In this document: one piece after another, positions 14,115 to 45,987 of the stretch | How the letters are laid out: each line of letters begins with the position of its first letter | Position numbering within the stretch: the stretch's first letter is position 1 | Translations under genes and position numbers: made by a program | The notes under the pieces: generated by a model | Seen by the model: the letters and a program-made list of their open reading frames with translations, nothing else | What the model was told of the DNA's origin: nothing | The model's database searches: none | NCBI GenBank assembly: GCA_002005505.1 | Contig: KV908355.1 | Coordinates: 653,237-700,736, forward strand | Length of the DNA stretch: 47,500 nt | From: Botryococcus braunii | Lineage: Eukaryota; Chlorophyta; Trebouxiophyceae | Direction: 5' to 3'

Positions 14115-14656
14115 CATCGAGAGTACTATCGTGTTATTTCCCTTGCCATAGGCCTTACGGAGTACCCGAAGGTGTCAGCATACCCCTCTAGGTAAGTGGC
14201 CCTGGCCCAGGACATCTGCAGGGTTGACGCGCAGTGTGCTGGCGGGCAGGGATTACGCGCTCTTCCCTACAAATCTCCCAGGGCGGGTGGGCGGGTCAAC
14301 AAATAAGTTTGCCAACCAACCCGGAGGTATGCTATCCTCCTTCAAATATTCAATGAAGGCTTTCAGCAATTTTTCTTTGTGTGCGAGCCTTCATTTCCTC
14401 GCCCTTGCTTGGCGCCGCAGTTCTAGAAGCTTACTGTCTACCCTATCACGTGACCGTTCGTAGTGCCTTTACCCTGACGGTGCCGATGGGCTAGCATCGA
14501 GAGTACTATCGTGTTCCCTTGCCATAGGCCTTACGGAGTACCCGAAGGTGTCAGCATACCCCTCTAGGTAATTGGCCCTGGCCCAGGACATCTGCAGGGT
14601 TGACGTGCAGTGTGCTGGCGGGCAGGGATTACGCGCTCTTCCCTACAAATCTCCCA
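14115..14656. repeat. 166-bp direct repeat flanking a 201-bp inserted block
   Basis: 14115-14280 and 14495-14656 are near-identical (the second lacks 4 bp and changes GTAAGT to GTAATT). They flank a block, 14296-14496, that is identical to 23172-23372. The block looks inserted or captured together with a duplication of the recipient sequence at the 5' side of the recombinase gene. Confidence 0.8.
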
Positions 14657-20034: not shown

Positions 20035-20455
20035 TATGACCATCAGCATCACCATTACCATCACCCTCAATCTTACCATCACCATAAATATCGGCATCAA
20101 CAGTGGGGCCACACATATTACCATCATTAGCAGCACAACAACCATATCACCATGAACATCACCATCCCCACACCATGAATATCACCACCGACCTCCCTAT
20201 CACCAGTACCATGAATATCCCATGCACCAAAATATTCCCATCACCTTCACCATGACCTTCACCATCAATATCACCATCACCATCAATGTCAATATCCCCC
20301 TGAATTTGTATACTCCCATGAATATCACCATCACCAGTACTTTCAGCACATCCATTGATCTCAATGTCACCATCACCACCACAATCAATATCCATAACAC
20401 CATCCACATCCCCATCAATAACAATATTCCCATCACTATCCACCATCCACCCTAA
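20035..20455. repeat. Degenerate (ATCACC)n / CATCA-rich repeat
   Basis: Continuous 'atcaccatcacc', 'aatatcacc' and 'catccccatc' words. Codes for Ile/Thr or Met/Val-Asp-Gly runs in all frames; not a gene. Confidence 0.85.
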
Positions 20456-22240
20456 TTTGCCAATTGGGGAAGGGAGCAACAACTGGGCCCAGTATGCAGA
20501 CCGGTGCAACCCGGGACCATCCACCTCCCTCCCCAATATGCTAATTGGGAAGGGAGCAACAATTGGGCCCAGCATGCTGACTGGTGCCACCCAGGACCAT
20601 CCACCTCCCTTCCCCAATATGCCAATTGGGCAAGGGAGCAACAACTGGGCCCAGTATGCAGACTGGTGCAACCCAGGACCCTCCACCTCCTTCCCCAATA
20701 TGCCACTTGGGAACGGGAGCAACAACTGGGCCCAGTATGCCGACTGGTGCAACCCAGGACCAACTTCTTCCCTCCCCAATATGCCACTTAGGGAAGGGAG
20801 CAAGAACTGGGCCCAGTATGCATACTGGTGCAACCCAGGACCATCCACCTCCCTTCCCCAATATGCCAATTGGGGAAGGGAGCAACAACATCTGGGCCCA
20901 GTATGCAGACTGGTGCCACCCAGGACCATCCCCCTCCCTGCACAATATGCCAATTGGTGAAGGGAGCAACAACATCTGGGCCCAGTATGCAGACTGATGC
21001 AACCCAGGACCATCCACTTCCCCAACTGGCATATTGGGGAAGGGAGCAACAACCAGGCCTTGTATGCAGACTGGTGCAACCCAGGACCAACTACCTCCCT
21101 CCCTAATATGCCACTTGGGGAAGGGAGCACGAACTGGGCCCAGTATGCATACTGGTGCAACCCAGGACCATCCACCTCCCTTCCCCAATATGCCAATTGG
21201 GGAAGGGAGCAACAACATCTATGCCCAGTATGCAGACTGGTGCAACCCAGGACCATCCACTTCCCTGCCCAATATGCCAATTGAGGAGGGGAGCAACAAC
21301 ATGTGGGCCCAGTATGCAGACTGGTGCAACCCAGAACCATCCACCTCCCTTCCCCAATATGCCAATTGGGGAAGGGAGCAACAACATCTGGGCCCAGCAT
21401 GCAGACTGGTGCAACCCAGGACCATCCACTTCCCTGCCCAATATGCCAATTGGGGAGGGGAGCAACAACATGTGGGCCCAGTGTGCAGACTGGTGCAACC
21501 CAGGACCATCCACCTCCCTTCCCCAATATGCCAATTGGGGAAGGGAGCAACAACTGGGCCCAGTATGCAGACTGGTGCAACCCAGGGCCATCCACCTTCC
21601 TTCCCCAATATGCCAATTGGGGAAGGGAGCAACAACTGGGCCCAGTATGCAGACTGGTGCAACCCAAGATCATCCACCTCCCTGCCCAATATGCCAATTG
21701 GGGAAGGGAGCAACAACAACTAGGCCCAGTATGCAGACTGGTGCAACCCAAGATCATCCACCTCCATGCCCAATATGCCAATTGGGGAAGGGAGCAACAA
21801 CTGGGCCCAGTATGCAGACTGGTGCAACCCAAGATCATCCACCTCCCTGCCCAATATGCCAATTGGGGAAGGGAGCAACAACAACTGGGCCCAGTATGCA
21901 GACTGGTGCAACCCAAGATCATCCACCTCCCTGCCCAATATGCCAATTGGGGAAGGGAGCAACAACTGGGCCTAGTATGCAGACTGGTGCAACCCAAGAT
22001 CATCCACCTCCCTGCCCAATATGCCAATTGGGGAAGGGAGCAACAACATCTGGGCCCATTATGCAGACTGGTGCAACCCAGGACCGTCCACCTTCCTTCC
22101 CCAATAAGCTAATTAAGGAAGGGAGCAACAACTAGGCCAAGTATGCAGACTGGTGCAACCCAGGACCCTCCACCTCATGTCCCCCTTTGGCCATTGAGGA
22201 AGGGAGCAACAATTGAGACAAGTATCTAGACTGGTGCAAC
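20456..22240. repeat. 82/85-bp satellite array, ~21 units
   Basis: Unit 'gccaattggggaagggagca' + 'acaactgggcccagtatgc' + 'agactggtgcaacccagga' + 'ccatccacctcccttcccca', 82 bp, or 85 bp with an extra ACA-type triplet ('acaacatctgg', 'acaacaactgg'). Units are about 90% alike. Both lengths are 1 modulo 3, so the reading frame rotates at every unit; a 622-codon minus frame and several long plus frames are by-products. Confidence 0.9.
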
Positions 22241-22254
22241 CCATGATCCCCAGC

Positions 22255-22396: not shown

Positions 22397-23339
22397 TCAC
22401 CCATTGGGACATGACATTCCCATTATATCTCCTTGAATGTATGCCTCAAATTTTCTTACTTGAAGGGCACCACAAAACATCACCCATAAGTACCATACCT
22501 TGGAGCTTAGGGGCGCAGGCGAAGTAACTTCTGTAGAGCCTTCCCGTTGCCCTCTCCCTCCTGAAGAATGTTTAGATAGGTCTACCACTTCCATGGCAAG
22601 AGGCTTGGGTGGGGGCCCTACCCCTGAAGGACCCCCGAAGCTGTAGGCGGTACCCGTGCATCCCAGCTCAGCAGTACCACAAGGACATTCCCCGTGCCAT
22701 AACTCCTGAAAACCTTCATTTCTTGCAAAGAAACAAGGCGAGGCAGGAATTTGCCCAATTCGTTGTGATTTAAAAAATTCCACGACATCGCCTTCCAGCA
22801 AGCTGTGTTGGTTGCGCAAGATTCCGCCAAACATGACTGTTTCATGGGAAAACTGCCTTGTGACTAGCACGCCTTCCCTGTCTAAAGCGAGCAACTCGAC
22901 CAAAGGCACTCCCTCGTCATCTTCGAACTCACACTGAAAACCTGGCAAGTTCTCCGTGACAATAAGTGTTCTGCCGGACGGAGAGATGGAGAACAACGAG
23001 TATCTGCCCGCTGTGGAGTTTGGCGCTGCCATCGAGAAAGGTACCAATTTTTGTAGTGCTTGTTGCAAAAAAACATTAAACCTGTCATTTGTAATGGTGT
23101 GATATTGCGGGCCAGGGTTATCTCGAGTAGGAGTGCCTTGCGCGCCAGCACCTACTTCTGCCATTGCGAACTCAACAAATAAGTTTGCCAACCAACCCGG
23201 AGGTATGCTATCCTCCTTCAAATATTCAATGAAGGCTTTCAGCAATTTTTCTTTGTGTGCGAGCCTTCATTTCCTCGCCCTTGCTTGGCGCCGCAGTTCT
23301 AGAAGCTTACTGTCTACCCTATCACGTGACCGTTCGTAG
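22397..23339 (-). pseudogene. Unrecognised gene or gene fragment with in-frame TGA
   Basis: A 280-codon frame of natural composition (minus) begins near 23266, e.g. KLLKAFIEYLKEDSIPPGW and LVPFSMAAPNSTAGRYSLF, with an aspartate/glutamate-rich middle. No family recognised. Upstream, after one TGA (23267-23269), the same frame continues as basic coiled-coil-like sequence (SKLLELRRQARARK) to at least 23339. The frame's last ~60 codons (below about 22560) look non-coding, so a splice donor probably lies before them. Either the TGA is a mutation or an intron boundary is missed. The first part lies in a 201-bp block also present at 14296-14496, with the same TGA. Confidence 0.4.
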
Positions 23340-23372
23340 TGCCTTTACCCTGACGGTGCCGATGGGCTAGCA
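23172..23372. repeat. 201-bp block, second copy of 14296-14496
   Basis: Identical to 14296-14496 by eye from 'tcaacaaataag' to 'gatgggctagca', in the same orientation, 8.9 kb apart. Confidence 0.9.
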
Positions 23373-24044: not shown

Positions 24045-24049
24045 CTGAG
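24045..24049. other. Target-site duplication of element A (left)
   Basis: CTGAG here and at 45988-45992 flank the LTR pair. Confidence 0.85.
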
Positions 24050-24492
24050 TGTTGGGTTTTGTACTTCATTATGTCATGTTAATTAACGTGCCTGCGTGCG
24101 TGCGTGCGCACGTGCGTGCGTGCGTGCGCACGTGCGTGCGTGCGTGCGTGTGTGAAGGTACAATCACATGTAATAATTAGCTGTAAGTTAACCAAGCAGT
24201 TAACTCAAGGTAAAGACATCTTGACAATGGCTATGAACGATCAATCTATGAGTATTAATGCATTGAGAGATATGTATTCTATGGCTGTAAATACCTTCCA
24301 GCCTTTAGTGGCTGGAAGACATGCATCTAGAGTTAATAAATGTGTTACTGTAGGATAAGGGTCCAAATTCTGTGGATAGGAACCCTGAGCATGTCCTAAT
24401 GTTCGTGAAAAAGGCCAGTAGCAGTGCTGGACAGCGCGTTTCCCACGCGCTGATCTGAGTACAGATAGCCAGAGAACCCGGACCACCAGGCA

Positions 24493-24907
24493 GTCATTCG
24501 ATCTCTTTGGCTTGTTAAGCCGACTCCTGAATGGACTCATGTGAATTGCTTTCTTTCTCTCTCACTTGTTGTGAGTAACTTCTGTGGAAGCAATTGCTAT
24601 ACGTGGTAAGTCGGGGCTCTGCCGGTCATGTTTTTCATCACGGCCATAAGTGCCGTTTTGTTGATCAGAGACTAATATGGGTATGTGAATGTTGCAGAAT
24701 TGTTCATCAGTTTGACGCTGTCGACTATGTATGTCTTGGTCAAACTGATTAAGTACATGGTAAGTCAGCTATGTGACGGCTGAGGGCTGCTTATAGATAA
24801 GGTTCATCATATGCAATGAACTAAAGGTGTTAGTGTGTTCACAGGATGATATACTTGTGAGTATAGTCATCATTTATGATTAATATAACACCTTTGGATC
24901 TTTGCAG
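24493..24907 (+). repeat. LTR A leader copy 1 (unspliced form)
   Basis: Three exon-like blocks, 24493-24605 (113), 24698-24759 (62) and 24845-24907 (63), are separated by introns 24606-24697 (GTAAGTCGG...GTTGCAG) and 24760-24844 (GTAAGTCAG...TTCACAG). A third donor, CAG|GTAAGA, follows at 24908. Confidence 0.9.
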
Positions 24908-24951
24908 GTAAGACTAGTTACTGTGTGTGTTCGTCCGACAGTAGTTTGTAA
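24908..24951 (+). promoter_or_regulatory. LTR A splice donor and UGUAA poly(A) signal
   Basis: Starts GTAAGACTAG and ends TTTGTAA immediately before leader copy 2. In the 5' LTR this would lie in an intron (donor 24908, acceptor 25183-25189); in the 3' LTR (45700-45743) it can serve as the poly(A) signal. Confidence 0.65.
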
Positions 24952-25189
24952 GTCATTCGATCTCTTTGGCTTGTTAAGCCGACTCCTGAATGGACTCATG
25001 TGAATTGCTTTCTTTCTCTCTCACTTGTTGTGAGTAACTTCTGTGGAAGCAATTGCTATACGTGAATTGTTCATCAGTTTGACACTGTCGACTATGTATG
25101 TCTTGGTCAAACTGATTAAGTACATGGATGATATACTTGTGAGTATAGTCATCATTTATGATTAATATAACACCTTTGGATCTTTGCAG
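24952..25189 (+). repeat. LTR A leader copy 2 (spliced form)
   Basis: 238 bp, equal to the three exon blocks of copy 1 joined without their introns, with one substitution (GACGCTG to GACACTG). Ends TTTGCAG, which can itself act as a 3' splice site. Confidence 0.92.
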
Positions 25190-25197
25190 ATCACTAT

Positions 25198-26750: not shown

Positions 26751-26888
26751 TGTTGTATTGGATGAGTTATTTATGCCTTTCCCTCAGTGGAGTAATAGTG
26801 GCTTTTCCGTCAGTGACAATAATAAATGACTAATATGGGCGAAACTGCAAAGACTTCGCAGTTAGGAACAATTCGAATGTAGATAGAG

Positions 26889-26911
26889 ATAACGCAAGTT
26901 ACAGACACGTT
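26889..26911 (+). promoter_or_regulatory. U3 motif conserved between elements B and C
   Basis: 'aacgcaagttacagacacgt' is identical in the LTRs of C (minus strand, 32471-32493 and 38920-38942), while surrounding U3 has diverged. It lies about 45-65 bp upstream of leader copy 1 and is a candidate promoter or enhancer element. No TATA box was seen. Confidence 0.5.
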
Positions 26912-26952
26912 TAGTGCAGGAAGGTAGTGGTGCTAGCACGGAGTGGCAAGGC

Positions 26953-27094
26953 ACTTGTTTGGGACTACACAAGCACTCCGGGTGTTTCCTTAAAGTTGCC
27001 CAATCAGTCCTTGATTGTTCATGTTCTTGACTCTACTCTTCGTCACACAGTAGAGCGAACTTTGACTCACACCCTCCGTGCCGCCACTGCACAG
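26953..27094 (+). repeat. LTR B leader copy 1, ends at splice donor
   Basis: 142 bp from 'acttgtttggg' to CTGCACAG, followed by GTAACG. The start may mark the transcription start. Confidence 0.85.
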
Positions 27095-27274
27095 GTAACG
27101 TGATTGTGAATAGAATGGGAGATTTGAGGCTTTGTTGACCTTAGTATTTCATGTTATGTGTATGTGCTTGGCTATCTTATCATCGGACAATGAGATTGAT
27201 CCTTTCTGAGTACGTACCAGTTAGGGTAGTTTGAATTCCGTTGTTAAGAGAGAGCAAGTGAGCAATTGTAATAG
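27095..27274 (+). promoter_or_regulatory. LTR B intron-like segment with UGUAA
   Basis: 180 bp from the donor GTAACG to just before leader copy 2. TGTAA lies at 27267-27271, three bases before copy 2. Confidence 0.6.
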
Positions 27275-27416
27275 ACTTGTTTGGGACTACACAAGCACTC
27301 CGGGTGTTTCCTTAAAGTTGCCCAATCAGTCCTTGATTATTCATGTTCTTGACTCTACTCTTCGTCACACAGTAGAGCGAACTTTGACTCACACCCTCCG
27401 TGCCGCCACTGCACAG
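27275..27416 (+). repeat. LTR B leader copy 2
   Basis: 142 bp, one difference from copy 1 in this LTR (GATTATTC for GATTGTTC). Ends CTGCACAG, joined to GAATACGCC rather than to a donor. Confidence 0.92.
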
Positions 27417-27442
27417 GAATACGCCAAGCCCATAACCTAACA

Positions 27443-27460
27443 GGTTATGGGCCCACCACT
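27443..27460 (+). promoter_or_regulatory. Primer-binding site of element B, half-tRNA-iMet type
   Basis: 'ggttatgggcccaccac' directly abuts the LTR. It is complementary to the anticodon stem-loop (GUGGUGGGCCCAUAACC) of plant initiator tRNA-Met, not to a tRNA 3' end. This is the type of primer used by Drosophila copia and yeast Ty5. Confidence 0.8.
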
Positions 27461-27508
27461 CTCCCGTTGAGTGTGGGTGGCTCTGAAGACGGAGGAAGAC
27501 AACCGTGA

Positions 27509-27995
27509 ATGGCTAAGAAACGCCGCACGAAGCAGACGGCAAGAAAAAACTACCTGTGTCAACGTTCCTGCGCACCTAAGGACTGGACCTCCCTCGTACA
27601 ACGATCGAATCAAGGCTGGGGGACCTCGAGGAGAACGTACACCGGACGAGCGAGCACTCATCATCAAAAACTACGTTCTTCATCTGTACGCTGGACGCCC
27701 GCTTCCTCTGCCATCGTGGTTTGCGGAAAGATTTCCTGTGTATCCAGCTTATAAGTTCACCCCGTGGGAGATTTCGTTTGTGAATCTTGAGCCTGGGTTC
27801 ATCACGAAGGCTAAGTTCCTGAAGTATTGGCGTACCATTGTTTGGCTGAACAGAGAGCAGGAAACAGCCGAAATTGCAGCGTACAACTCAGTGGAGTTAG
27901 CATTGTCCACTATCCCGGTAGCTGTTTTCAAAGACACCCTGTCTCTGAGTGTTCGATGTGAAGCTGACTGGGAGACGGAGTCAGACAGTGATTAG
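27509..27995 (+). pseudogene. Element B pre-gag ORF with histone H3-tail-like N terminus
   Basis: Begins MAKKRRTKQTARK. After an A run (27542-27547) the related coding continues in another frame (NVPAHLRTGPPSYNDRIKAGG...) to the stop at 27993-27995, ending in acidic SDSD. Compared with C (MAKKRTKQTARK, then NVPARLRSGPPSYNELIREGG in the same frame), B has a frameshift, unless it is programmed. The downstream frame alone is 174 codons from 27471. RTKQTARK is the H3 residue 2-9 sequence. No domain recognised in the rest. About 110 residues of the C-terminal part are absent from C. Confidence 0.6.
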
Positions 27996-28053
27996 TCCGG
28001 TGGTTGAGATGACTGTCTGAATGTTTCCTTGATAATCGTAAAGAGTGCAGACA

Positions 28054-31000
28054 ATGACATCGAAGAAGAAGGGGCAGTCAACGAGTGGGGCGTCAACCTC
28101 AAGCAGCGAGACCACCACCTCTACACCTGTTCGAGAACCCTGCACCCCAAGTACATCAAGGGGGGAAGGTGATGTATTGCCAAAAGTTATTCCCACTCAG
28201 GTTAAAGTACACATCAAACTGAGGGACAAGGGACATAATATTCTGATATGAAAGAGTGCTTATTTGGCAGCCAATGAGGCAAAGGGGTCCCTTCCTGCAG
28301 TGCTGGAGGCCATGCCTGGCACGTTGCATGATGCAGCAGCTCTGTTACTGTTGTATGAATCTGTGCCTGAGGAGTGGCAGGGAGAACTGGCAGAACTGGG
28401 ATCTGCATATGATGCATATGAGTACATATGCAGGAAATTCATTGGTGGACATAATCTTCAGGCAAACATGGACTGGTTGCAAGAAATGGGTCAAGGGATG
28501 AGACACGATGAAACAATTTCCCAATACGTGAATCGCATGCTCAATCTCAAAGCCTGCCTCCACAGAAATAATCATCATCTGATGGATGGCTTTGTAGCGA
28601 CCCAAATAGTGCAGGGTCTCCCTGAGGCAGCTAAGGAGCCTGGCAGCCTGTCCACAGCCGTCGCATCTCCACTCAACAAACTGGCTGAATTACTACGTAC
28701 CACTGCAGCGGCCCTGGGCTTTGATGAGACAGCTCCCCGCCAGCCCAGAGTCCTGGCCATCACCCCAAGCACTAGTGGAGCCAGCAACCCGCCAGCAGCA
28801 AGTGCAGCAACTGCTCAGCAGTCTTCAAGTGCATCTGATCCCAAGGGAGTTTGCAACTACTGCAATAAAAAGGGCCATTATTGGAGAGACTGCAGAAAGA
28901 GGCGCAGGGACGAGGAGACCCAGAGGAACGTGGTGGCAGCAGTCCAGCAACTGCAAGGCATGTGGCCTCAGGGCCAGCCACCTGTGGGTGGACACCATCC
29001 TCCAGTAGCCCAACTGGCCCATCATGGTGCAGATGCCTTCCCTGCTTGGTTCCAGCCTCCTGCTCCACCTCCACCTCCTCCTGAAGGTATGCTGTACACA
29101 ATATCCCACAATGTCCTGGACAGTACGATCAGTAAACCCTTACAGCACTCCTGGCTGGTTGACAGTGGGGCATCGGTCCACCTAGTAAATGACGTGGCAT
29201 TGCTGCATAATCCTATCATCCATGCCAAACCAATTCCCCTGCACTTGGCTACCTCTGATGCCACTTGTTGTATTATTGCATCTGGGTCAGTCTGTATTTT
29301 GAGCCCGCAACGCTTTTCCTTCTGGATCCATCATGTGCAGTGTGTCCCCTCAGCTACCACCAACATCCTGTCAGTATCTGCTGCCCTTAGGGATGGTGCA
29401 GTATTCCAAACAGACAATGTGGGTGCCTTTTCGTATGTCAGTGGACCAAACCACTGGAGAGCTCAGGTCACTGCAGAGATGGGACTGTACTACATTCATA
29501 GTGTAGTTGCAGTGAGAGGGACCAGCACATCGAAGCATGCAGCCAGTGCAACCAAACAGTCAAAATCCAGTATCTTGTCGCACAGCTGTGCCAAACGTTA
29601 CTTATGGCATAGCAGAATGGGACACCCTGGAGAAACGTGGATGCAGCGTCTTGCTAAGGAGAACCTGGTGACTGGGATTGACACCTCCCTCTCTCCCTGC
29701 ACTGATTGCCCGGTACACTGTGAAGCATGTATTGAAGGAAAGACTGCCAGACCCTCTTTCGGAACCAGTACCAGACCTGCCTTGGAACCTCTGGACCGAG
29801 TACACATAGACACTGTGGGTCCCATTACACCCGCAGCCATTACTGGTGAACGTTTGTGGGTTACTATACTAGATGAAGCCTCTCAGTGGAAAGCAGTTAT
29901 CCCAGTAAAGTCCAAAGACACCATCAGTGCAGCTGTCAGGGACTTACTTGTTTACTGGCAGACGCAACGAAAAACCACTGTGAAGTGTGTCAGATGTGAC
30001 AGAGGAACTGAATTTATTAATGCTCGGTTCAAGGAGTTCTGTGCCTCCCAGGGGACTAAGCTGGAGACCTCTGCCCCCTACACCCCACAGCAGAATGGAG
30101 TGGCTGAACGAGCCAACCGAACCCTGAAGGAAACAACCCGGACTATCCTGGCCTTTGCTGCTGCCAGTCCCACCCTCTGGAAAGAAGCCCTGGAGACAGC
30201 ATGCACCTTGCTCAACATGGGCCCAAGTACAGGCAGGGACCTTACCCCCTTTGAATTATTCTGGGGATATAAGCCTGATGTCTCACTTCTGCGCACATGG
30301 GGCTGCCTTGCATATGTGCATATCCCAGATGTCCAGAGGCCAGTCTTTGCACCAAAAACTGTGCCAGGAATGCTCACCGGTTATTCAGCCTCCTCCAAAG
30401 CCTATAATATATACATGGGTGGGGGTATATGGCGAGAAAGCAGAGATGTCATCTTTGTGGAGCACCTCAGAGGGGCCTCTCGTATTGGTCTCAGTGTGAC
30501 TCCCGCTCAGTCTGAGGAATTTCTGTGCCCTGTTCCCTCTGGAACCAGCACTTCCAAACAGCACCCAGAGCCAGTTACTGTATCCTGTGAAGACGACAGT
30601 GAGGCAGAGATCCAGGACTCGTCCGTTGAGACATTGCACCCTCACATTTCCCAGAAAGACGCAGACTCAGAATGTCCAGGACCCTCTGGGAAGGCTGAGC
30701 CCAAGCCTGACCCCCAGAGATCCACTGCTCCCGTGGAGATCCGAAGGACCATCGAAGCAACTCTGGACCTGGCCCGCGGCGCTCATTCGGACTCGGGCCT
30801 ACAGCAACAAATGATGCGAGCTCAAGAGACTCTCAGGCCAACCAGCCTGGAGAATTCCAATTTGGCTGCTGATGGGCTGACAAGAGCTCAGAGGCATGAG
30901 CAACGAACACTTGCAAGAGAACTCCTGCTGTCACAGGAGATGGGAGTGAGCAGAGACAAAGTGGGGCTAACAGAAAGTGACACACAGTCACCGGGACCAG

Positions 31001-31942
31001 GGGAAGTGCAGGTAGATGGGTGCCAGTCTGAGAGCTCTGATTTTCATGTTAGTGATGAGAGGGGGGCAGCCACAATCATGACTGCAAATGGTCCCAGGGA
31101 GCTGAGTTGCACGGGTGGGTCCTGTCCAGTGAATGAGCTTCATGTCAGCGGTGAGACTTGTGTGGAAACGTCTGGCTCTCCCCATCAGTGGCGTGGACTG
31201 GTAGGGGAAGGTGGTGACAGCCACAGTCCTGAGGAGAGACATTCCACTCTCTCGGAAACAGCCAGAAATGTCTGTGAGAGCAGTACTGGGTCTGCATCCC
31301 AGTACTTGTGTGAGAGCCGAGAAGAGGAGGTGAATCAGGTGCACAGACAGTGTGTGGTACCACCAAATTACAAGTGCAGCCTGAGAGGTACCTGTGTATG
31401 GGAGAAGGATGTAAGGGATGAGAGGTCACAGACTCTTGTGACACAACGTGGAAGTCAGAGACAAACAAGTCAAGAAAGGGAGGGGAAGCAAAGGGGCGAC
31501 CAGAGCCTACCTCCCCCTGCCTGTGAGAGCCCTCAAGAGCCTGAGCTTGAGAGGATGTGTAAGCGTGTGGATGTGGAGGTGAACCGGAAGCTCAGACAAT
31601 GTGAGAAACATCCTGACTATGGATGCTTCCCGGGAGGTACCTGTGTCTGGGAGGAAGATGTGAGCGTGCAAGACAACAAGTTGAGCAGTGCGAAGTGTGA
31701 ATCCAAGAGAGAGAGAAGCATGAGAGAAAGCTCTGATACCACTGAGAGAAAACTAGCTGTAGTGCGGCGAGTGTCAGTGGAAGAGTAGTGGGTTCTGAGG
31801 GTGCAACCAACGATTCTCCCAAGGGTAAGGGAGAGGAGGGGAAGCACACTGGTGTTAGATTTGGTAAAATCCATGTTCCTCTAATTTAAGAGAAGCTCAG
31901 ATGTCTCCTCAGTGGGAATACTGGAAGGCTGCGATGCAAGAA
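28054..31942 (+). CDS. Element B Gag-protease-integrase, interrupted
   Basis: Starts MTSKKKGQSTSG. In-frame TGA at 28249-28251 replaces a Trp present in C; the long frame reopens to 31788 (1174 codons from 28264). Gag has knuckle CNYCNKKGHYWRDC (about 28852-28893), protease WLVDSGASVHLVND (about 29152-29193), GAG-pre-integrase LWHSRMGHPGETWMQRL (29604) with CEACIEGK, and integrase D-D-E motifs VHIDTVGPI (29803), DRGTEFINARF (29998) and QNGVAERANRTL (30091). The linker carries two Cys-rich repeats (31325-31410, 31570-31665). Frame breaks near 31785 and 31890 precede the C insertion at 31942. Confidence 0.88.
31938..31942. other. Target-site duplication of element C (left)
   Basis: AAGAA here and at 39083-39087 flank element C inside the gag-pol of B. 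Confidence 0.95.
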
Positions 31943-32633
31943 TGAAATATTCTGGGCTTGGCGTATCCTGCATGGTGGCGGCACGGAGGGTGTTAGACGA
32001 TGTCCTCCTACTTGTGCGTTGTTAAGTAGGCACGGACATATACAAGTCAAGGACTGGTTAGCAACTGATTGATAGACACCCGGAGTGCCACTATAGTTCC
32101 AACCAAGTGTTACAATATCTCTCATCTCTCCTAACAAGGTGACGCAGTTCAAACACGCCTAACCTGCTCTCACCCAGGTCGTGTTCATTACTTTGTCCGA
32201 TGAGCTAAACTCAACTCTATATGTCTAACATGTTCTAACAATGTTCATCTGAGTGCTAAATCCAGGAATACAATAAGGATTAAGTCACCTGCATGGTGGC
32301 GGCACGGAGGGTGTTAGACGATGTCCTCCTACTTGTGCGTTGTTAAGTAGGCACGGACATATACAAGTCAAGGACTGGTTAGCAACTGATTGATAGACAC
32401 CCGGAGTGCCACTATAGTTCCAACCAAGTGCCTTCCCTATCCGTGCTTGCCCCATATGCCTCCTTTCTACAAACGTGTCTGTAACTTGCGTTATGATAGT
32501 CTTCGTTCAAATGCATGTATTGCCTGGCAGAACTCAGGGTTCTGCCTCTCTTTCCTAATTGGTATTGTCTTCATACGGAGACTTGCCATTATTACTCCTC
32601 TGAGGGAAAGGCATAAAATTAATTAACACAACA
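31943..32633 (-). repeat. 3' LTR of element C
   Basis: On the element strand: leader copy 1 32429-32289, 180-bp segment 32288-32109 ending in TGTAAC (signal at 32114-32110), leader copy 2 32108-31968, terminal 25 bp. Confidence 0.95.
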
Positions 32634-32651
32634 CTTCCCCTTGCCTTTACC
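32634..32651 (-). promoter_or_regulatory. Polypurine tract of element C
   Basis: Minus strand 'ggtaaaggcaaggggaag' directly before the 3' LTR. Confidence 0.85.
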
Positions 32652-35600
32652 TCACAGAAACTTGGCCAGTCCCAGTGAGTTACGATGTCCCAGAAACACT
32701 TGTCTAACTAGTGGTTTGGTAAAAATGTCAGCCACATTTCTAGCAGATTGAATGTACTTGAATTCAACCTGCCCCTTTGCAATAGCTTCACGTGCGAAAT
32801 GACAGCTAATTGCAATATGCTTTGTGTGTTTGGAGTACACCGGATTCCTCAGGTGGTTTATACACCCTTGGTTGTCACAATGAATCTTCACTATCCACGG
32901 TAACACTCCAATTTCCTCCAGGAAACCTCTCAGCCAATTTGCTTCCTTCACAACAGCACTTGCTGCCATGAATTCAGCCTCCACTGTTGAAGTGGCAACA
33001 GCAGATTGCTTTTTACTTCCCCACACTACTGCTCCTCCAAACACAGTGAGGACAAAGCCAGTGGTAGAGAAGCGATGATCCTGATCACCTCCATAGTCGG
33101 CATCCACATAGCCTTCTAGCTCTATCTCCCCCCCTCCGAGAGTTAGAACCAAATCTCGGGTTCCTTTCAGATACTTCAACACACGGATGGCTTCATTCCA
33201 ATGTGCTGTGGTGGGAGATATGCGATAACGAGACAATACACCTACTGCCTGAGCTATATCGGGACGTGTGGTGTTGGCTATATACAGAAGAGACCCTACT
33301 AACTCACAGTAACGGTGACCTGGAGGTAGTGGACTGCCAGCACCAATGCTGTCGCTCCCATCTCTCGGTGCAGGCCTTTGGGACATTACGAAATCTTTTG
33401 TCATGGGAGTATCAGGTCCCACTGACTCAAGATCCAAGCCAAATTTCTCTACAAGTGCATCGATTTTAGGGATGCAACTCAGGGTGATCAGCCCTTTATC
33501 TCTATCTCTCATCACTTGACATCCCAAGAAATCCTTCACTTCCCCAAGATCATGGATGGTGAATTCTTTCTTGAGAAGTCCCTTCACTCTCTCGATTTCT
33601 GACATGCCCTTGGAAACTATCAGAAGATCATCAACATAGATCAGCACATAGGACTTTCCTCCATCAGTAGAGCATCTCACATACACTCCCGCATCACTCT
33701 TGCACACCTCATACCCCATGACTTCAAGTTTGTCATTCAGGGTTTTGTGCCAGGCACGTGGAGCCTGCTTCAGGCCATACAACGCCTTTCTCAATCGGCA
33801 CACAATATTCTTATCACCATTCTCAAAGCCAGGAGGTTGCGTTACATATACTTCCTCCTCGAGCTCACCATTCAGAAAGGCGGTCTTAACGTCCACCTGA
33901 TGAATTTCACAGCCCTCTCTTGCAGCAACAGCAAGCAGAGCTCTTCTAGCTCCATAGCTACTAGTAGGAGCAAAGACCTCCATCACATCCACTCCAGGGA
34001 TTTGTCTGCATCCCTGTGCCACTAATCTGGCCTTGAATCTCACAACATTGCCATGTGCATCCATTTTCACTGAAAATATCCAGTGAACTGGAATAACCTT
34101 ATGTCCACGAGGTCTCGGAACATACTCCATGACCTCATGAGTATCTAGAGAATTTTGCTCTTCCTGCATAGCTGCCTTCCAGTATTCCCACTGGGGAGAC
34201 ATCTGTGCTTCTCTCAAATTAGAGGGAACGTGAATTTTCCCAAATCTGACACCTGTGTGCTTTTCCTCTGAATTGCCTGATTTTCTCTCACTTTGTCCAG
34301 AACCCACTACTCTTCCACTGACACTCGCTGAGTTACACATCACAGGCTCTCCAGTAGAAGTAGAATGCTCTCTCATAGCACGCTCTCGCTTGGACTCACA
34401 CTTGGCTTTGCACAAGTTACTCTGCTCATCCCTCACATCATCCTCCCATGCACAGGTACCTCTCGGACAGTCTTTGTAATTTGGAATCCCTTCACATTGT
34501 CCAGACTTCCGATTCACCTCCTCAGACACACTCTGACATGCCTGCAAGAGTTCAGACTCTTCAGGTCTCTCACAAGCAACATCGGGATATGGCAGAGTGT
34601 CTGCATACTTCCCCTGATTTATGTGATCCACATGCCTCTCAGACCGACTGCATGTCACTGTTGGGAGTGACCTCACATCTCTGACATCACTCTCCCAGGC
34701 ACAGGTACCTCTCAGTGAGCACTTGTAATTTGGTCTGTCTCCACAATGTCTGTGCTCCTGATTCACCTCCTCCTCTCGTCCCTTACATGGAGTCAAGGAT
34801 GCAGATCCTGTCTCCCGCTCACAATCATGTTTGGCTGGTGCAGAGAAAGCATATGATGCTTCCTCTGACCGGTGGCTGCCACCACAGTCCCGTCCAGGAG
34901 TGCTCTGACTGGACGGGTTGCCAGAAGAACTCTGCATGGTCACATCTCTTACATTTCTCTCAGTCACTGAACAAGACCCACCCATACTGCTCAGCTCCCC
35001 GGGACCATTTGCAGCTTTGCATGTAGCTGCCCCCCTCACTGCACTCACATGCAATTCATGCCCCTCATGTGAATCACCCTCTAGCTGCACTTCCCCTGGT
35101 CCCTGTGACAGAGAGTCACATTCAGTCAACCCCTCTCGCTCTCTGCTCTCTCCCTTCTCCTGTGGCAGCAGGAGGTCTTTGGCGGCAGTGCGTTGTTCGT
35201 GTCGTTGAGCCCGGGTCAGGCCATCCAATTGGTGGTTGCGGCAATCAGACCTAGTTGGTCTGAGGACCTCCTGGGCTCGCTCCATCTGCGGTCGAAGGTG
35301 GGAGTCCTGTCTCACTCCTCTGGCTAAGTCCTGTACTGCCTCCAGGGTTTGATCCATCTCCACTGGGTCACACAGTCTTCTGGATTCAGGCTCGGGCTCA
35401 GCCTCACTGGGGGGTCCTGTGACAGGCTGTGTGGGGAGGTTGCTGGAGGCTGGCAGGTACTCAGGCTCACTGTGTGGGTCATCAAGATCTGTCTCAAGGC
35501 TGATGTTGGTTGTGCCAGGGGAGGTGCCGGGAAAGACTGGGGGAGTGTCACTTGCAGAGGGCTCAGGACACAGAAACTCTGTAGACTGTGTTGAGGAAAC

Positions 35601-38054: not shown

Positions 38055-38323
38055 AATTCCCCAGTTGTCTTATAACTCCAGTACTCGCAAGGTAGCAGCA
38101 AGATCTTACTTCTGAACCAGGTGGGTTGAGCTAACGGACAGCCAACGTGAAGGTGAAAGATGTAGTCTTTGACGATAAAGGCTCTCTCGTCAGGATTGCG
38201 GTCTCCACGTTGTCCTCCTTCTCTGATTAGTTCGTTGTATGACGGAGGTCCTGATCTCAAGCGCGCTGGAACGTTGAGGTTGGTGGTCTTCCTGGCTGTT
38301 TGCTTTGTCCGCTTCTTCGCCAT
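38051..38323 (-). CDS. Element C pre-gag ORF with histone H3-tail-like N terminus
   Basis: 90 residues starting MAKKRTKQTARKTT; RTKQTARK is identical to histone H3 residues 2-9, and the next two (TT for ST) are conservative. It is followed by NVPARLRSGPPSYNELIREG and DERAFIVKDYIFHLHV, shared with B. No known domain. It lies between PBS and gag, and its stop overlaps the gag ATG (ATGA), which suggests re-initiation or coupled translation. Compared with B the last ~110 residues are missing, replaced by a short different tail containing a GTAAGA donor-like site. Role inferred only: a chromatin-binding or histone-mimic accessory peptide. Confidence 0.6.
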   Translation of the reverse strand: MAKKRTKQTARKTTNLNVPARLRSGPPSYNELIREGGQRGDRNPDERAFIVKDYIFHLHVGCPLAQPTWFRSKILLLPCEYWSYKTTGEL

Positions 38324-38373
38324 TCACAGTCTAGTGAGCTCCGATTTAGGCGCCACCCACTCTCAGCATCCGA

Positions 38374-38391
38374 GCCCGTGGGCCCATAACC
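38374..38391 (-). promoter_or_regulatory. Primer-binding site of element C, half-tRNA-iMet type
   Basis: Minus strand reads 'ggttatgggcccacggg' immediately after the 5' LTR, sharing GGTTATGGGCCCAC with element B. Confidence 0.78.
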
Positions 38392-39082
38392 TGAAATATT
38401 CTGGGCTTGGCGTATCCTGCATGGTGGCGGCACGGAGGGTGTTAGACGATGTCCTCCTACTTGTGCGTTGTTAAGTAGGCACGGACATATACAAGTCAAG
38501 GACTGGTTAGCAACTGATTGATAGACACCCGGAGTGCCACTATAGTTCCAACCAAGTGTTACAATATCTCTCATCTCTCCTAACAAGGTGACGCAGTTCA
38601 AACACGCCTAACCTGCTCTCACCCAGGTCGTGTTCATTACTTTGTCCGATGAGCTAAACTCAACTCTATATGTCTAACATGTTCTAACAATGTTCATCTG
38701 AGTGCTAAATCCAGGAATACAATAAGGATTAAGTCACCTGCATGGTGGCGGCACGGAGGGTGTTAGACGATGTCCTCCTACTTGTGCGTTGTTAAGTAGG
38801 CACGGACATATACAAGTCAAGGACTGGTTAGCAACTGATTGATAGACACCCGGAGTGCCACTATAGTTCCAACCAAGTGCCTTCCCTATCCGTGCTTGCC
38901 CCATATGCCTCCTTTCTACAAACGTGTCTGTAACTTGCGTTATGATAGTCTTCGTTCAAATGCATGTATTGCCTGGCAGAACTCAGGGTTCTGCCTCTCT
39001 TTCCTAATTGGTATTGTCTTCATACGGAGACTTGCCATTATTACTCCTCTGAGGGAAAGGCATAAAATTAATTAACACAACA
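38392..39082 (-). repeat. 5' LTR of element C
   Basis: On the element strand: TGTTGTGTT at 39082, leader copy 1 38878-38738 (ends CATGCAG|GTGACT), 180-bp segment 38737-38558, leader copy 2 38557-38417, then GATACGCC to TTTCA at 38392. Confidence 0.95.
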
Positions 39083-39087
39083 AAGAA

Positions 39088-40596: not shown

Positions 40597-40614
40597 GGAA
40601 AAGGCAAGGGGAAG
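40597..40614 (+). promoter_or_regulatory. Polypurine tract of element B
   Basis: 'ggaaaaggcaaggggaag' directly before the 3' LTR. Confidence 0.85.
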
Positions 40615-41306
40615 TGTTGTATTGGATGAGTTATTTATGCCTTTCCCTCAGTGGAGTAATAGTGGCTTTTCCGTCAGTGACAATAATAAATGACTAACAT
40701 GGGCGAAACTGCAAAGACTTCGCAGTTAGGAACAATTCGAATGTAGATAGAGATAACGCAAGTTACAGACACGTTTAGTGCAGGAAGGTAGTGGTGCTAG
40801 CACGGAGTGGCAAGGCACTTGTTTGGGACTACACAAGCACTCCGGGTGTTTCCTTAAAGTTGCCCAATCAGTCCTTGATTGTTCATGTTCTTGACTCTAC
40901 TCTTCGTCACACAGTAGAGCGAACTTTGACTCACACCCTCCGTGCCGCCACTGCACAGGTAACGTGATTGTGAATAGAATGGGAGATTTGAGGCTTTGTT
41001 GACCTTAGTATTTCATGTTATGTGTATGTGCTTGGCTATCTTATCATCGGACAATGAGATTGATCCTTTCTGAGTACGTACCAGTTAGGGTAGTTTGAAT
41101 TCCGTTGTTAAGAGAGAGCAAGTGAGCAATTGTAATAGACTTGTTTGGGACTACACAAGCACTCCGGGTGTTTCCTTAAAGTTGCCCAATCAGTCCTTGA
41201 TTGTTCATGTTCTTGACTCTACTCTTCGTCACACAGTAGAGCGAACTTTGACTCACACCCTCCGTGCCGCCACTGCACAGGAATACGCCAAGCCCATAAC
41301 CTAACA
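40615..41306 (+). repeat. 3' LTR of element B
   Basis: Same structure as the 5' LTR: leader copy 1 40817-40958, segment 40959-41138 with TGTAA at 41131-41135, copy 2 41139-41280. Confidence 0.95.
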
Positions 41307-41311
41307 ATGTG

Positions 41312-42882
41312 GGACTGTGTGCTTGGTGGATCAGCAGGGAAATACATGCATATTGAGAGATGTTGAATTTGTTCCAACTGCATTGGAAAATTTAATGTCA
41401 GTGTCTGCTGGAGTTGTTGATGGTTTAAATTTTTCAACAAATCCACTAGGAGAAGTCACACATGTTTGCTGTCAGAAGTCATCGTTTCAAGTAGAAGTGA
41501 CAAAAGAAAGAGGACTATACTTCTGCTCAGTGATATGTCAGTCAGTAAAGTTGCCCCATGTTGCTGGCATTGCACACAAGTGTTCAGAGTACGACTTATG
41601 GCATGCAAGACTAGGACACCCTAGCAGTAAAAACATGGAACGCTTGCAAACCGAAGATATGGTGAAAGGCATTGAGACGTCATTATCACCTTGCAATCAT
41701 GGTCACTCACATTGTGAGGTTTGTGTTCTGGGGAAGCAGACTAGAGAGAGCTACCCACGCTCTCCGGCAACGGCTACAGAGCGATTAGAGATTGTCCACA
41801 TGGATATTGTGGGTGAACTGCCTGTACCGGGTGCTGAAGGAGAGAGGTACATGCTCACCATGCTGGATGATTTCTCAAAGGCGGGTGTTGCAAGGGCATT
41901 GGTCCTGAAGTCTCAGGTGGGTGATGCTGTTAGAGCAATTCTCCTGTACTTAGAAAATCAGACTGGCCATACTGTAAAGGTTGTCAGGACTGATAGAGGG
42001 ACTGAGTTTGTAAACTCAGATTTGCGTGAGTTCTTTCATTCGAAGGGGATAAGACACGAGACGTCTGCCCCTTATACCCCGCAACAAAATGGCCGGGCGG
42101 AACGCTTTAACCGTTCCTTGAAAGAGAAGGTTAGAATGTTGCTGCTACAGGCTAAGGCTCCACAAAGCTTGTGGACCGAAGCGCTGCCTACTGCTGTTAG
42201 GTTACTAAACCTCAAGGCAATTAAGGGGAAGACTGCTACCCCTTATGAGCTATTATTTGGCAGGAAGCCTGCTGTTCATTACTTGAGGGTATTTGGCTGT
42301 CTTGCATACATCAAAACGCCTGACAAGGATCTGTCTGCCTTTTCTCCTAGATCAGAGGCAGGAATGTTTGTCGGGTACGAACCAGCATCTAAGGCATATA
42401 GAGTGCTGGTTGGGGATAAGATCAAGGTGTCAAAAAATGTGAAATTTTTTGAAGACAAATTGGGTATCCACACTCTCTCTACTGATACCCAACTGCCCCC
42501 TGATTTCCCACGTGATGTAAACTGTGATCAGGTGCCAAGCTCTGCAGACGAAGAGGACTGGGATTTTGTCCCAGTTGACATTGCTGAGGCAGTGGACATG
42601 AACAGGGAAGCTGGAAGGGGAGAAGACCAAATCCTACCAGCTAACCTAGAAGTGTTGCAGAGACTCAATGAAGTACTAAGGCAACAAGCTCAGGCGGAAG
42701 AGAGTGGGAACAGGGATACACATGGTCCAGGCGTCTCAGGGGAAGAGTCAATGGGCCCTGGGGATGAGCAGGAACAACCAGGAGATGGTGAAAATGATCC
42801 CGGTAGTGACTCGGATCAGGACCGCTCATCACGGGAGTCTGACAGTGGGGATGAGGCGCAGGACAGGGTAAGAGGTGGATGA
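41312..42882 (+). CDS. Element A protease end, GAG-pre-integrase and integrase
   Basis: Continues the protease after the ATGTG duplication. The GAG-pre-integrase domain has DLWHARLGHPSSKNMERL and HSHCEVCVLGK. The integrase catalytic triad is seen as VHMDIVGE (41797), DRGTEFVNSD (about 41992) and QQNGRAERFNRSL (about 42085). After a Ser/Asp/Glu-rich linker it stops at 42882, overlapped by the next frame at ATGA, so a frame change is needed to reach RT. Confidence 0.88.
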
Positions 42883-43520
42883 GTAGGTATGATCTTAGAG
42901 AGACACTTGCTCAACCTGATAAGTATATACCTGGATCTTACTTTGTCAAAGACGATGCGATAGCAGGAGCAACAAGGGTCACATCACCTAACCAAAATGG
43001 TGCAAAGGAGAAGGAGGTCCTATCCTCTAGGAATGTAAAAATCCCTAACGATTGGTTTGAGGCGAGGAATTCACCTCAATGGGTATACTGGAAGGAGGCT
43101 ATGAATGAGGAAATGGACTCAATTGAGTCTCATGAGACATTTGAATACTGTCACAAGCCTTCCCATGCCAAGGTGATCCCACTGAAGTGGGTTTATGCAA
43201 TTAAAACTGATGGTTTTGGGGATGTAATCAAGTTCAAGGCGAGGCTTGTGGCACAAGGATGCAAACAAAGACCAGGGGTGGATTATTTTGAGACTTTTGC
43301 TCTTGTCAGTACACACTCATCCAGGCGTGTGCTTCTGAATCTGGCAAACGCTAAGGGATGGAAGGTACATCAGGTAGACATTAAAACTGCCTTTCTTAAT
43401 GGGTCCTTAGAGGAGGAAGTTTATGTAACTCAACCCCCCTGTTTCTCTAATGGTGATTCGAGTAGAGTATGTAAGCTTCTGAAATCATTGTATGGCCTGA
43501 AGCAGGCCCCACGCGCGTGA
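42879..43520 (+). CDS. Element A reverse transcriptase, N-terminal part
   Basis: Starts at ATG 42879, overlapping the previous stop. Contains copia RT motifs: SPQWVYWKEAMNEEMDSIES, KVIPLKWVYAIKTDGFG, RLVAQGCKQRPGVDYFETF, VHQVDIKTAFLNGSLEEEVY, LYGLKQAPRA. It ends at TGA 43518-43520 where copia RTs have Trp, a nonsense mutation. Confidence 0.88.
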   Translation: MSRYDLRETLAQPDKYIPGSYFVKDDAIAGATRVTSPNQNGAKEKEVLSSRNVKIPNDWFEARNSPQWVYWKEAMNEEMDSIESHETFEYCHKPSHAKVIPLKWVYAIKTDGFGDVIKFKARLVAQGCKQRPGVDYFETFALVSTHSSRRVLLNLANAKGWKVHQVDIKTAFLNGSLEEEVYVTQPPCFSNGDSSRVCKLLKSLYGLKQAPRA

Positions 43521-44232: not shown

Positions 44233-44843
44233 ATCCGTCTCCCCCCGGCCGACCCCGGGAGCCGCCCGCCCGCGGCTCCCGGATCGTACCGCCTCGTACC
44301 GGCAATTCTGGGACTCCCCGAGGACGGTCCCAGGTTGCCCCCCCCCCCCACCCAACAACCAACCAACCAACCAACACCAACAAAAAGCAAAACGAGACGA
44401 GGAGACCAACCAAAAACTGGACAAGAAACACACAGAGCTGGGAAACCCCCCCCACCCCTTGTTGCCTGTCCCCCGTGATTTTCCGTGTTTCGGTGGATAA
44501 TCCTCGAGCTCCGACCCTCTCCTGGGTCCGGGAGCCGGACCACAGACACCCCTAAAGGACCTGAAAAGCTCCAAAAATAAAAACTGATCTGCCAGCCAGG
44601 GGATTTCTTTCCAGTAGTTTCAGCGTTCCCCTGGATGTTTTCGGATTTCCGAACACCACATTCCGCGAGCCCCCCTAACGAAAAGGGAAACGGTAAAACC
44701 TCTCGAACGCCCCACAAATAATATGGAAAACAAACATACACAATATGACAGCCCATGCACACCCCATAAGAAAAATGATGACCCATGTCCCAGATGCCCC
44801 GAACGCACCATCCTCGCAGGACCTGCTTTTAATTAACTGACAT
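44233..44843. other. Foreign segment replacing the RNase H end of element A
   Basis: GC-rich, non-copia DNA of about 600 bp with a C run (44338-44350) and 'accaaccaacc' repeats, ending before the polypurine tract of A. No protein family recognised on either strand. Confidence 0.6.
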
Positions 44844-44861: not shown

Positions 44862-45987
44862 TGTTGGGTTTTGTACTTCATTATGTCATGTTAATTAACG
44901 TGCGTGCGTGCGTGCGTGCGCACGTGCGTGCGTGCGTGCGTGTGTGAAGGTACAATCACATGTAATAATTAGCTGTAAGTTAACCAAGCAGTTAACTCAA
45001 GGTAAAGACATCTTGACAATGGCTATGAACGATCAATCTATGAGTATTAATGCATTGAGAGATATGTATTCTATGGCTGTAAATACCTTCCAGCCTTTAG
45101 TGGCTGGAAGACATGCATCTAGAGTTAATAAATGTGTTACTGTAGGATAAGGGTCCAAATTCTGTGGATAGGAACCCTGAGCATGTCCTAATGTTCGTGA
45201 AAAAGGCCAGTAGCAGTGCTGGACAGCGCGTTTCCCACGCGCTGATCTGAGTACAGATAGCCAGAGAACCCGGACCACCAGGCAGTCATTCGATCTCTTT
45301 GGCTTGTTAAGCCGACTCCTGAATGGACTCATGTGAATTGCTTTCTTTCTCTCTCACTTGTTGTGAGTAACTTCTGTGGAAGCAATTGCTATACGTGGTA
45401 AGTCGGGGCTCTGCCGGTCATGTTTTTCATCACGGCCATAAGTGCCGTTTTGTTGATCAGAGACTAATATGGGTATGTGAATGTTGCAGAATTGTTCATC
45501 AGTTTGACGCTGTCGACTATGTATGTCTTGGTCAAACTGATTAAGTACATGGTAAGTCAGCTATGTGACGGCTGAGGGCTGCTTATAGATAAGGTTCATC
45601 ATATGCAATGAACTAAAGGTGTTAGTGTGTTCACAGGATGATATACTTGTGAGTATAGTCATCATTTATGATTAATATAACACCTTTGGATCTTTGCAGG
45701 TAAGACTAGTTACTGTGTGTGTTCGTCCGACAGTAGTTTGTAAGTCATTCGATCTCTTTGGCTTGTTAAGCCGACTCCTGAATGGACTCATGTGAATTGC
45801 TTTCTTTCTCTCTCACTTGTTGTGAGTAACTTCTGTGGAAGCAATTGCTATACGTGAATTGTTCATCAGTTTGACGCTGTCGACTATGTATGTCTTGGTC
45901 AAACTGATTAAGTACATGGATGATATACTTGTGAGTATAGTCATCATTTATGATTAATATGACACCTTTGGATCTTTGCAGATCACA
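44862..45987 (+). repeat. 3' LTR of element A
   Basis: Leader copy 1 at 45285-45699 (with both introns), segment 45700-45743 with TGTAA, copy 2 at 45744-45981 lacking the introns. Ends CAGATCACA, followed by the CTGAG duplication. Confidence 0.9.

What the first reader, a model, noticed from the sequence alone, without database searches (positions are those of the whole stretch)
24493..25189. LTR A contains its own leader twice: once with introns, once exactly spliced
Copy 1 (24493-24907) consists of blocks of 113, 62 and 63 nt separated by two GT-AG introns of 92 and 85 bp. Copy 2 (24952-25189) is 238 nt, exactly 113+62+63, with junctions precisely at the introns' GT and AG. The same holds in the 3' LTR (45285-45699 and 45744-45981). 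A DNA copy of a spliced leader inside an LTR must have passed through RNA. I know of no described LTR with this architecture.
Basis: seen in the sequence. Interest (0 to 1): 0.96.

Follow-up and report, generated by a model that had tools for sequence, protein, structure and literature searches.

The report
Retrotransposon LTR with pre-spliced leader copy
The ends of this jumping gene carry the start of its own predicted message twice, once with two predicted introns and once exactly without them, and the intron-free copy is likely rewritten from spliced RNA each time the element copies itself, which would let a reverse-transcribed element keep introns in its ends.

Summary
In LTR A, copy 1 has blocks of 113(+1), 62 and 63 nt separated by GT-AG segments of 92 and 85 nt; copy 2 is their exact fusion, and the 3' LTR shows the same.

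Five LTR families in this genome share the layout U3, R1, GT-spacer-R2-AG, tail, primer site (A-C are Ty1/copia by Pfam; D, E by primer site); A and E also have introns in R1 that R2 lacks. Subfamily mutations occur in both copies and private ones in one, with three mixed sites, so R2 is renewed, not a relic.

Best model: R2 is remade each cycle from strong-stop cDNA of the spliced leader; R1 passes through the 3' LTR. Rare LTRs lack intron 3, introns 2+3 or all three, as expected if the cDNA lands on an R1 exon instead, although DNA recombination could also do this.

No RNA was available. Nine paper searches, judged mostly from listings, showed no such LTR.

The parts
24050..25195 (+). 5' LTR of element A (TG...; ends ATCAC[T], ATCACA in sister copies); TSD CTGAG at 24045-24049 and 45988-45992
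24050..24491 (+). U3 of LTR A, ending GGC just before the putative +1 A
24492..24605 (+). R1 exon 1 (114 nt with the shared A at 24492)
24606..24697 (+). intron 1 of R1 (GTAAGT...GCAG, 92 nt), predicted
24698..24759 (+). R1 exon 2 (62 nt)
24760..24844 (+). intron 2 of R1 (GTAAGT...ACAG, 85 nt), predicted
24845..24907 (+). R1 exon 3 (63 nt), ends CTTTGCAG directly before GTAAGA
24908..25189 (+). predicted intron 3 (GTAAGA...TTGCAG, 282 nt): spacer X plus the whole of R2
   Evidence: LTRs lacking exactly this segment:
24947..24951 (+). TGTAA, candidate green-algal poly(A) signal, directly upstream of R2 (its last A is R2's first base)
   Evidence: signal at about -17 in chlorophytes: PMC1868727, passages
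24951..25189 (+). R2: intron-free copy of R1 exons 1-2-3
25190..25195 (+). LTR tail ATCAC[A/T], followed by the likely primer binding site (TGGTACTGGGCCC)
44862..45987 (+). 3' LTR of element A: R1 45284-45397 / 45490-45551 / 45637-45699, introns 45398-45489 and 45552-45636, intron 3 45700-45981, R2 45743-45981
26751..27442 (+). 5' LTR of nested copia element B: R1 26953-27094, predicted intron 27095-27416 (GTAACG...CACAG) containing TGTAA 27267-27271 and R2 27275-27416; 3' LTR 40615-41306
38392..39082 (-). 5' LTR of nested copia element C: R1 38878-38738, predicted intron 38737-38417 containing R2 38557-38417, tail 38416-38392; 3' LTR 32633-31943
41317..43520 (+). element A pol pieces: gag_pre-integrs, rve and SH3 (ORF 41317-42882), then RVT_2 (ORF 42879-43520): Ty1/copia order

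Best explanation
LTR A carries its predicted leader twice, R1 with two GT-AG segments (predicted introns) and R2 as the exact copy without them inside a third GT...AG unit, and R2 is likely rewritten at each replication cycle from cDNA of the spliced 5' leader while R1 with its introns would be inherited through the 3' LTR. Inferred steps: (1) RNA starts at A24492. (2) Introns 1, 2 and 3 are spliced near the cap; intron 3 removes the spacer, the TGTAA signal and R2, so the mature 5' end reads R(239)-ATCACA-PBS. (3) In the 3' LTR the RNA is cut shortly after TGTAA, inside the start of R2, so intron 3 has no acceptor there and R1 stays unspliced in template RNA. (4) Reverse transcription from the PBS copies tail plus spliced R up to the cap. 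(5) This strong-stop DNA lands on the start of R2 at the RNA's 3' end and copies on through X, unspliced R1 and U3. The new LTR is again U3 - R1(introns) - X - R2(spliced) - tail. Landing on an R1 exon instead would give the collapsed LTRs seen. The likely benefit is that the 5' LTR poly(A) signal lies in an intron and is silenced, while introns persist in an element that is reverse transcribed every generation. Shown: the anatomy, its recurrence in five families, the co-variation of R1 and R2, and the collapsed series. Not shown: any RNA.
For: Exact spliced copy in both LTRs. 30 of 30 fetched A LTRs (of 40 scored and 617 candidates, picked by similarity to the full LTR, so biased to complete ones) keep the layout. 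Whole-genome exact patterns: U3 plus R1 with intron 1, 63; R1 with exon 1 joined to exon 2, 3; R2 with intron 1 retained, 0; intron 1 lost with intron 2 kept, 0. Concerted change: in A (23 insertions by my grouping) 3 subfamily sites (7, 4 and 5 insertions) are variant in both R1 and R2 of every carrier, 36 private variants are in one copy only, and R1-R2 differences are 36 against a shuffled mean of 63.7, 0 of 20,000 shuffles as low; in B (18 insertions) 3 of 3 shared sites are in both copies, 7 private ones in one, 5 differences against 20.8, 0 of 20,000. A B copy about 7% diverged has 6 of 8 changed R sites in both copies. The same plan in B, C, D, E with other R sequences, E again with an intron in R1 and not in R2. 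R2 starts at a pyrimidine-A of R1 and lies next to TGTAA (A-D) or TGTAG (E). Collapsed LTRs in TSD-flanked elements: all three introns gone in both LTRs (C332), intron 3 gone in both LTRs (C326); family C: 16 collapsed matches (15 fetched and confirmed) against 417 intron-bearing.
Against: No transcript was available, so TSS, splicing and poly(A) site are all inferred from DNA. Collapsed LTRs could also arise by recombination between the direct exon repeats: in the C44 element the 5' LTR lacks introns 2+3 but the 3' LTR is complete, which points to a DNA-level or recombination event there. Introns 1 and 2 have good-looking splice sites in the 3' LTR too, and why they survive there is not explained. 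Three A sites do not fit the clean both-or-private pattern (24603, 24883, 24885). Some copies have altered splice sites (L003, L007, L017, L018, L019, L027 in A; L043 in B), which may be decay after insertion. The poly(A) position rests on a 5-nt motif and a weakly identified host. Only one genome was seen.
Confidence: 0.76

Rival explanations
1. Same rewriting of R2 from spliced leader cDNA, but the RNA ends at or after the end of R2, so the whole 239 nt is the R region and transfer can occur anywhere in R2.
For: Gives the same LTR product; exon 3 ends ATTAATATAACACCTTTGG, where AATATA could be a weak signal (my reading).
Against: TGTAA or TGTAG sits directly upstream of R2 in 5 of 5 families and not in the bases just upstream of R1; only 6 nt of LTR A follow R2; no R2-only variant is shared by separate insertions except in the mixed site 24885.
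Confidence: 0.2
2. One-time capture: an ancestral element once gained a spliced cDNA copy of its leader and both copies have since been inherited passively.
For: Would explain the exact spliced copy in family A alone.
Against: Subfamily variants occur in both copies of the same LTR; B and C are about 68-79% alike yet each has R1 = R2 at 99-100%; other families share the plan.
Confidence: 0.03
3. DNA-level tandem duplication or gene conversion keeps the two copies alike, and the introns are a by-product of an AG|GT duplication.
For: Direct exon repeats in LTRs do seem to recombine (C44). Duplication of AGGT segments is a recalled route of intron gain.
Against: R2 lacks exactly the introns in A (two) and E (one), which no DNA duplication gives; conversion would carry introns into R2, and 0 such copies were found by exact pattern.
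Confidence: 0.05
4. Ordinary LTR: transcription starts at R2, which is the normal R-U5, and R1 is vestigial U3 sequence.
For: R2 plus tail adjoins the PBS just as a conventional R-U5 does.
Against: It gives no reason for R1 and R2 to change together, for R1 to end in a donor and R2 in an acceptor in every family seen, or for the introns to be missing only from R2.
Confidence: 0.04

Closest known systems
Ty1/copia LTR retrotransposons
   Same: IN-before-RT order, RVT_2, 5-bp TSD, TG...CA LTRs; PBS GGTTATGGGCCC in B-E like the recalled initiator-tRNA half primer of copia
   Different: A conventional copia LTR is U3-R-U5 with one R; here the LTR has two leader copies and one to three predicted introns.
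Foamy virus LTR (PMC3694450, abstract seen)
   Same: Splice donor lies upstream of the poly(A) signal within the LTR; U1 at the donor silences the 5' signal.
   Different: Its abstract mentions no second, pre-spliced leader copy; here the likely signal and the second copy lie inside a short predicted intron contained in the LTR.
HIV-2/SIVmac leader (TAR) intron (recalled; the listing showed no dedicated paper)
   Same: An intron within R-U5 of the 5' LTR.
   Different: No spliced copy is kept in the LTR; recalled, not tested here.
L1 SpIREs (PMC5860796, abstract seen)
   Same: Splicing inside a retroelement's 5' UTR leaves intron-free genomic copies.
   Different: SpIREs generally are dead ends; here spliced and unspliced leader stand side by side and appear to be renewed.
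Ogre and EVADE introns (PMC12786077, passages seen)
   Same: LTR retrotransposons with functional introns.
   Different: The passages describe introns that make subgenomic RNAs by alternative splicing; I saw no introns within the LTR described there.

Membership tests
Ty1/copia superfamily | copia-type reverse transcriptase (RVT_2) | tested here: met
   A 1.6e-40, B 3.5e-65, C 4.6e-67; families D and E not tested
Ty1/copia superfamily | integrase encoded upstream of reverse transcriptase | tested here: met
   A: rve in ORF 41317-42882, RVT_2 in 42879-43520; not shown for B-E
Ty1/copia superfamily | LTRs with TG...CA ends and 5-bp TSD | tested here: met
   A CTGAG, B ATGTG, C332, C326 and five C elements
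Ty1/copia superfamily | primer site for an initiator tRNA half | tested here: inconclusive
   GGTTATGGGCCC in B, C, D, E; A mostly TGGTACTGGGCCC; match to the tRNA is recalled, no tRNA of this genome was compared
Conventional U3-R-U5 LTR | a single R copy per LTR | tested here: not met
   two copies in A, B, C, D, E; rare collapsed LTRs do have one
Foamy-virus-type control of the 5' poly(A) signal | donor upstream of the poly(A) signal in the LTR | tested here: inconclusive
   order GTAAGA 24908 before TGTAA 24947 is there, but that TGTAA is the signal is inferred
Foamy-virus-type control of the 5' poly(A) signal | U1 binding at the donor silences the 5' signal | not testable with these tools
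   needs RNA work

The most novel reading that the evidence does not exclude
A whole group of copia elements replicates with a two-R LTR: introns live permanently in the LTR because reverse transcription writes a fresh spliced leader next to the unspliced one every cycle, and an LTR-contained intron hides the 5' poly(A) signal and the strand-transfer landing site. This would be a new way to solve both the intron-loss and the two-identical-poly(A)-signals problems of retroelements.
Probability: 0.62. Interest if true: 0.93.

Novelty: new variant of a known kind. Interest (0 to 1): 0.9.

Why it matters
Introns should be lost from an element that is copied through its own spliced RNA, and identical LTRs carry identical poly(A) signals that must be off at one end and on at the other. 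This LTR layout would solve both with one device, and it leaves a readable record: each new insertion would write its parent's spliced leader as R2. It gives a natural, genome-readable version of the classic intron-marked retrotransposon experiment, and, if the model holds, the collapsed LTRs count mis-landings of strong-stop DNA (family C: 16 collapsed matches against 417 intron-bearing).

Tried and rejected
Later insertion of introns into copy 1: rejected, all 30 fetched A LTRs have them in R1 and none in R2. Chance GT...AG: of the direct repeats of at least 45 nt lying 60-900 nt apart in the window, only those of the A, B and C LTRs showed the donor/acceptor pair; in the other loci 7 of 42 repeat rows (both strands counted; rows at the usual A and B spacings left out) showed it, belonging to A, C, D, E and, weakly, F. 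Relatives elsewhere: two scans of viral contigs found none; the protein search with A's RT gave as best-scoring hit an unnamed metagenome protein 96% identical over 65% of the query, and mostly unnamed proteins among the 120 listed. Host: one exon had a response-regulator hit below Pfam's cut-off, and the only one of its 14 relatives with an organism code is from Astpho2 (that this is the green alga Asterochloris is recalled), so a green alga is a guess with weak support. Ten ORFs of 1-18.3 kb had no Pfam hit; no Rfam hit at gathering scores. A GalEa copia paper and an LTR-structure paper had no splicing passage (term counts). (0 matches) is void: its gap range was too short; the corrected one search found the two C326 LTRs. 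The pattern for intron 1 kept with intron 2 lost did not complete, so that class is known only from C44. I did not count R2 genome-wide. Family F (57 nt, 91%) is too decayed to lean on.

Full report
Observation. LTR A spans 24050-25195 and 44862-45987, flanked by the 5-bp repeat CTGAG. R1 is identical between the two LTRs.

R1 exon 3 ends ...TTTGCAG and is followed by GTAAGA; R2 ends ...TTTGCAG and is followed by ATCAC[T], ATCACA in sister copies, and the primer site. The stretch 24908-25189, spacer plus all of R2, is therefore a third predicted GT-AG intron of 282 nt. A transcript starting at R1 and spliced three times would read R-ATCACA-PBS, the same letters as R2-ATCACA-PBS. The end of R has to serve both as exon end before a donor and as acceptor, and CAG fits both.

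Not one family. Elements B (inserted in A) and C (inserted in B, opposite strand) have LTRs with the same plan: R1 of about 142 nt, then GT-spacer-R2-AG of 322 and 321 nt, then tail and GGTTATGGGCCC. R1 and R2 are 99-100% alike within each element, although B and C are only 68-79% alike. A scan of the held loci for direct repeats with this donor/acceptor geometry found family D (L052; R1 135 nt, 328 apart, 100%; part of it also in L026) and family E (L045; R1 and R2 97-99% alike), in which R1 has one 86-nt intron (GTAAGC...ACAG) and R2 is exactly spliced. A weak, decayed case, F, is in L015. A, B and C are Ty1/copia by Pfam; D and E were not tested with Pfam and are called copia-like from their primer site.

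R2 is rewritten, not inherited. Among 30 A LTRs (23 insertions by my grouping of LTRs on one contig or duplicated contigs), the three subfamily sites 24576, 24602 and 24880 are variant in both R1 and R2 of every carrier (7, 4 and 5 insertions), while 36 private variants sit in one copy only (17 in R1, 19 in R2); three sites (24603, 24883, 24885) are mixed or split. R1-R2 differences, one LTR per insertion, total 36 against a shuffled mean of 63.7 (minimum 42 in 20,000). In B (30 LTRs, 18 insertions) all three shared sites are in both copies, 7 private ones in one, and the total is 5 against 20.8 (minimum 9) (per-site tables). A B copy about 7% diverged has 6 of 8 changed R sites in both copies; the B LTR beside it 2 of 3. 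This is what is expected if R2 is copied from R1 each cycle.

Collapsed LTRs. By exact pattern, which misses copies mutated in the anchors, 63 A sites have U3 followed by R1 exon 1 and intron 1 (these include both C326 LTRs and the C44 5' LTR below) and 3 have exon 1 joined to exon 2. The latter are both LTRs of one element on C332 (TSD AAATC) and a truncated LTR on C308; there U3-R-tail is contiguous and all three introns, R2 included, are gone. The C326 element (TSD TCCCC) lacks intron 3 in both LTRs but keeps introns 1 and 2. The C44 element (TSD GGTCT) has a 5' LTR without introns 2 and 3 but a complete 3' LTR. C66 and a second C308 site, fetched in the same call, are ordinary. Intron 1 lost with intron 2 kept: 0. 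R2 with intron 1: 0. So the losses seen are 3, 2+3 and 1+2+3: the series expected if strong-stop DNA (spliced R plus tail) lands on R1 exon 3, 2 or 1 instead of R2, or if exon repeats recombine in DNA. C332 and C326 carry the change in both LTRs, so it most simply preceded integration; C44 does not, and warns that DNA recombination also happens. In midpoint-rooted trees C332 and C326 sit inside the family beside ordinary copies (UFBoot 97 and 99), so they look derived. In family C, a shared 5' anchor gives 417 intron-bearing R1 and 16 C-type intron-less LTRs among 19 matches. I fetched 18 of the 19 (15 C-type): all 15 read U3-R-tail at 99-100% identity to ordinary C, including five elements with both LTRs collapsed and matching TSDs (GAGAG, GTTAA, GTTGT, AACTG, CCTGG). 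Of the three others, two B/C-like LTRs (C604, C12) also read as collapsed and one (C342) is an ordinary R2 that matched by its flank. A GGGTGCC variant occurs in both ordinary and collapsed C copies (only the first places of 128 are listed), so at least two collapses are likely.

RNA 3' end. TGTAA (A, B, C, D) or TGTAG (E) lies directly upstream of R2 and not in the bases just upstream of R1. UGUAA is the top signal in the chlorophytes studied except Pyramimonas, peaking about 17 nt before the cut (PMC1868727, passages; for Chlamydomonas also PMC4025486, passages). The host may be a green alga: of 14 relatives of one host frame the only one with an organism code is Astpho2, recalled as Asterochloris, which is weak. 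If so, the RNA would end about 9-14 nt inside R2, and the signal in the 5' LTR lies in intron 3. Foamy viruses also place a donor before the LTR poly(A) signal and use U1 to silence it (PMC3694450, abstract).

Mechanism and limits. Shown by sequence: anatomy, recurrence, co-variation, collapsed series. Inferred: start site, splicing, poly(A) site, landing on R2, benefit. Open: why introns 1 and 2 survive in the 3' LTR of the template RNA; how the layout arose; whether it exists outside this genome.

Novelty. Paper searches showed no LTR with this layout; I judged this from the listings (5-20 papers each, of up to 4,022 matches) and from passages or abstracts of the papers opened. Subscription papers and preprints are mostly outside the library. 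LTR retrotransposon introns named there (Ogre, EVADE) serve subgenomic RNAs (PMC12786077, passages), and spliced L1 copies are generally dead ends (PMC5860796, abstract). I rate it a new LTR architecture within Ty1/copia.

Noticed in passing
26751-41306: Three-level nesting: copia element B sits in element A, and copia element C sits in B on the opposite strand; B carries TSD ATGTG.
   Followed up: partly
31943-39082 and genome-wide: Family C looks very young and abundant: the 41 matches listed (40 of 880 candidates scored) are all given as 100% identical over the full LTR, and 417 R1 sites match an exact pattern.
   Followed up: partly
27428-27452; L052 (reverse complement) 3370-3396: In B and D the LTR tail contains GCCCATAACC, the perfect inverted repeat of the adjoining primer site GGTTATGGGC, so the PBS could fold into a hairpin (read by eye, not folded).
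   Followed up: no
L023 tail: One A copy has primer site ATGGTTATGGGCCC where the other fetched 5' LTRs have ATGGTACTGGGCCC, a possible switch or drift of the primer site within the family.
   Followed up: no
44226-44840: Between A's RNase H region and its 3' LTR lies about 0.6 kb of GC-rich sequence that looks foreign to copia (by eye).
   Followed up: no
20429-22249: Minisatellite with copies at multiples of about 81-84 bp, overlapping an open frame of 622 codons on the minus strand with no Pfam hit.
   Followed up: no
14296-14496 and 23172-23372: A 201-bp perfect direct repeat 8.9 kb apart, origin unknown.
   Followed up: no
L015:2630-2842: Possible sixth family (F): 57-nt repeat, 91% alike, with TACAG|GTAATT and TACAG|GGAATA ends, next to an A LTR.
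   Followed up: partly
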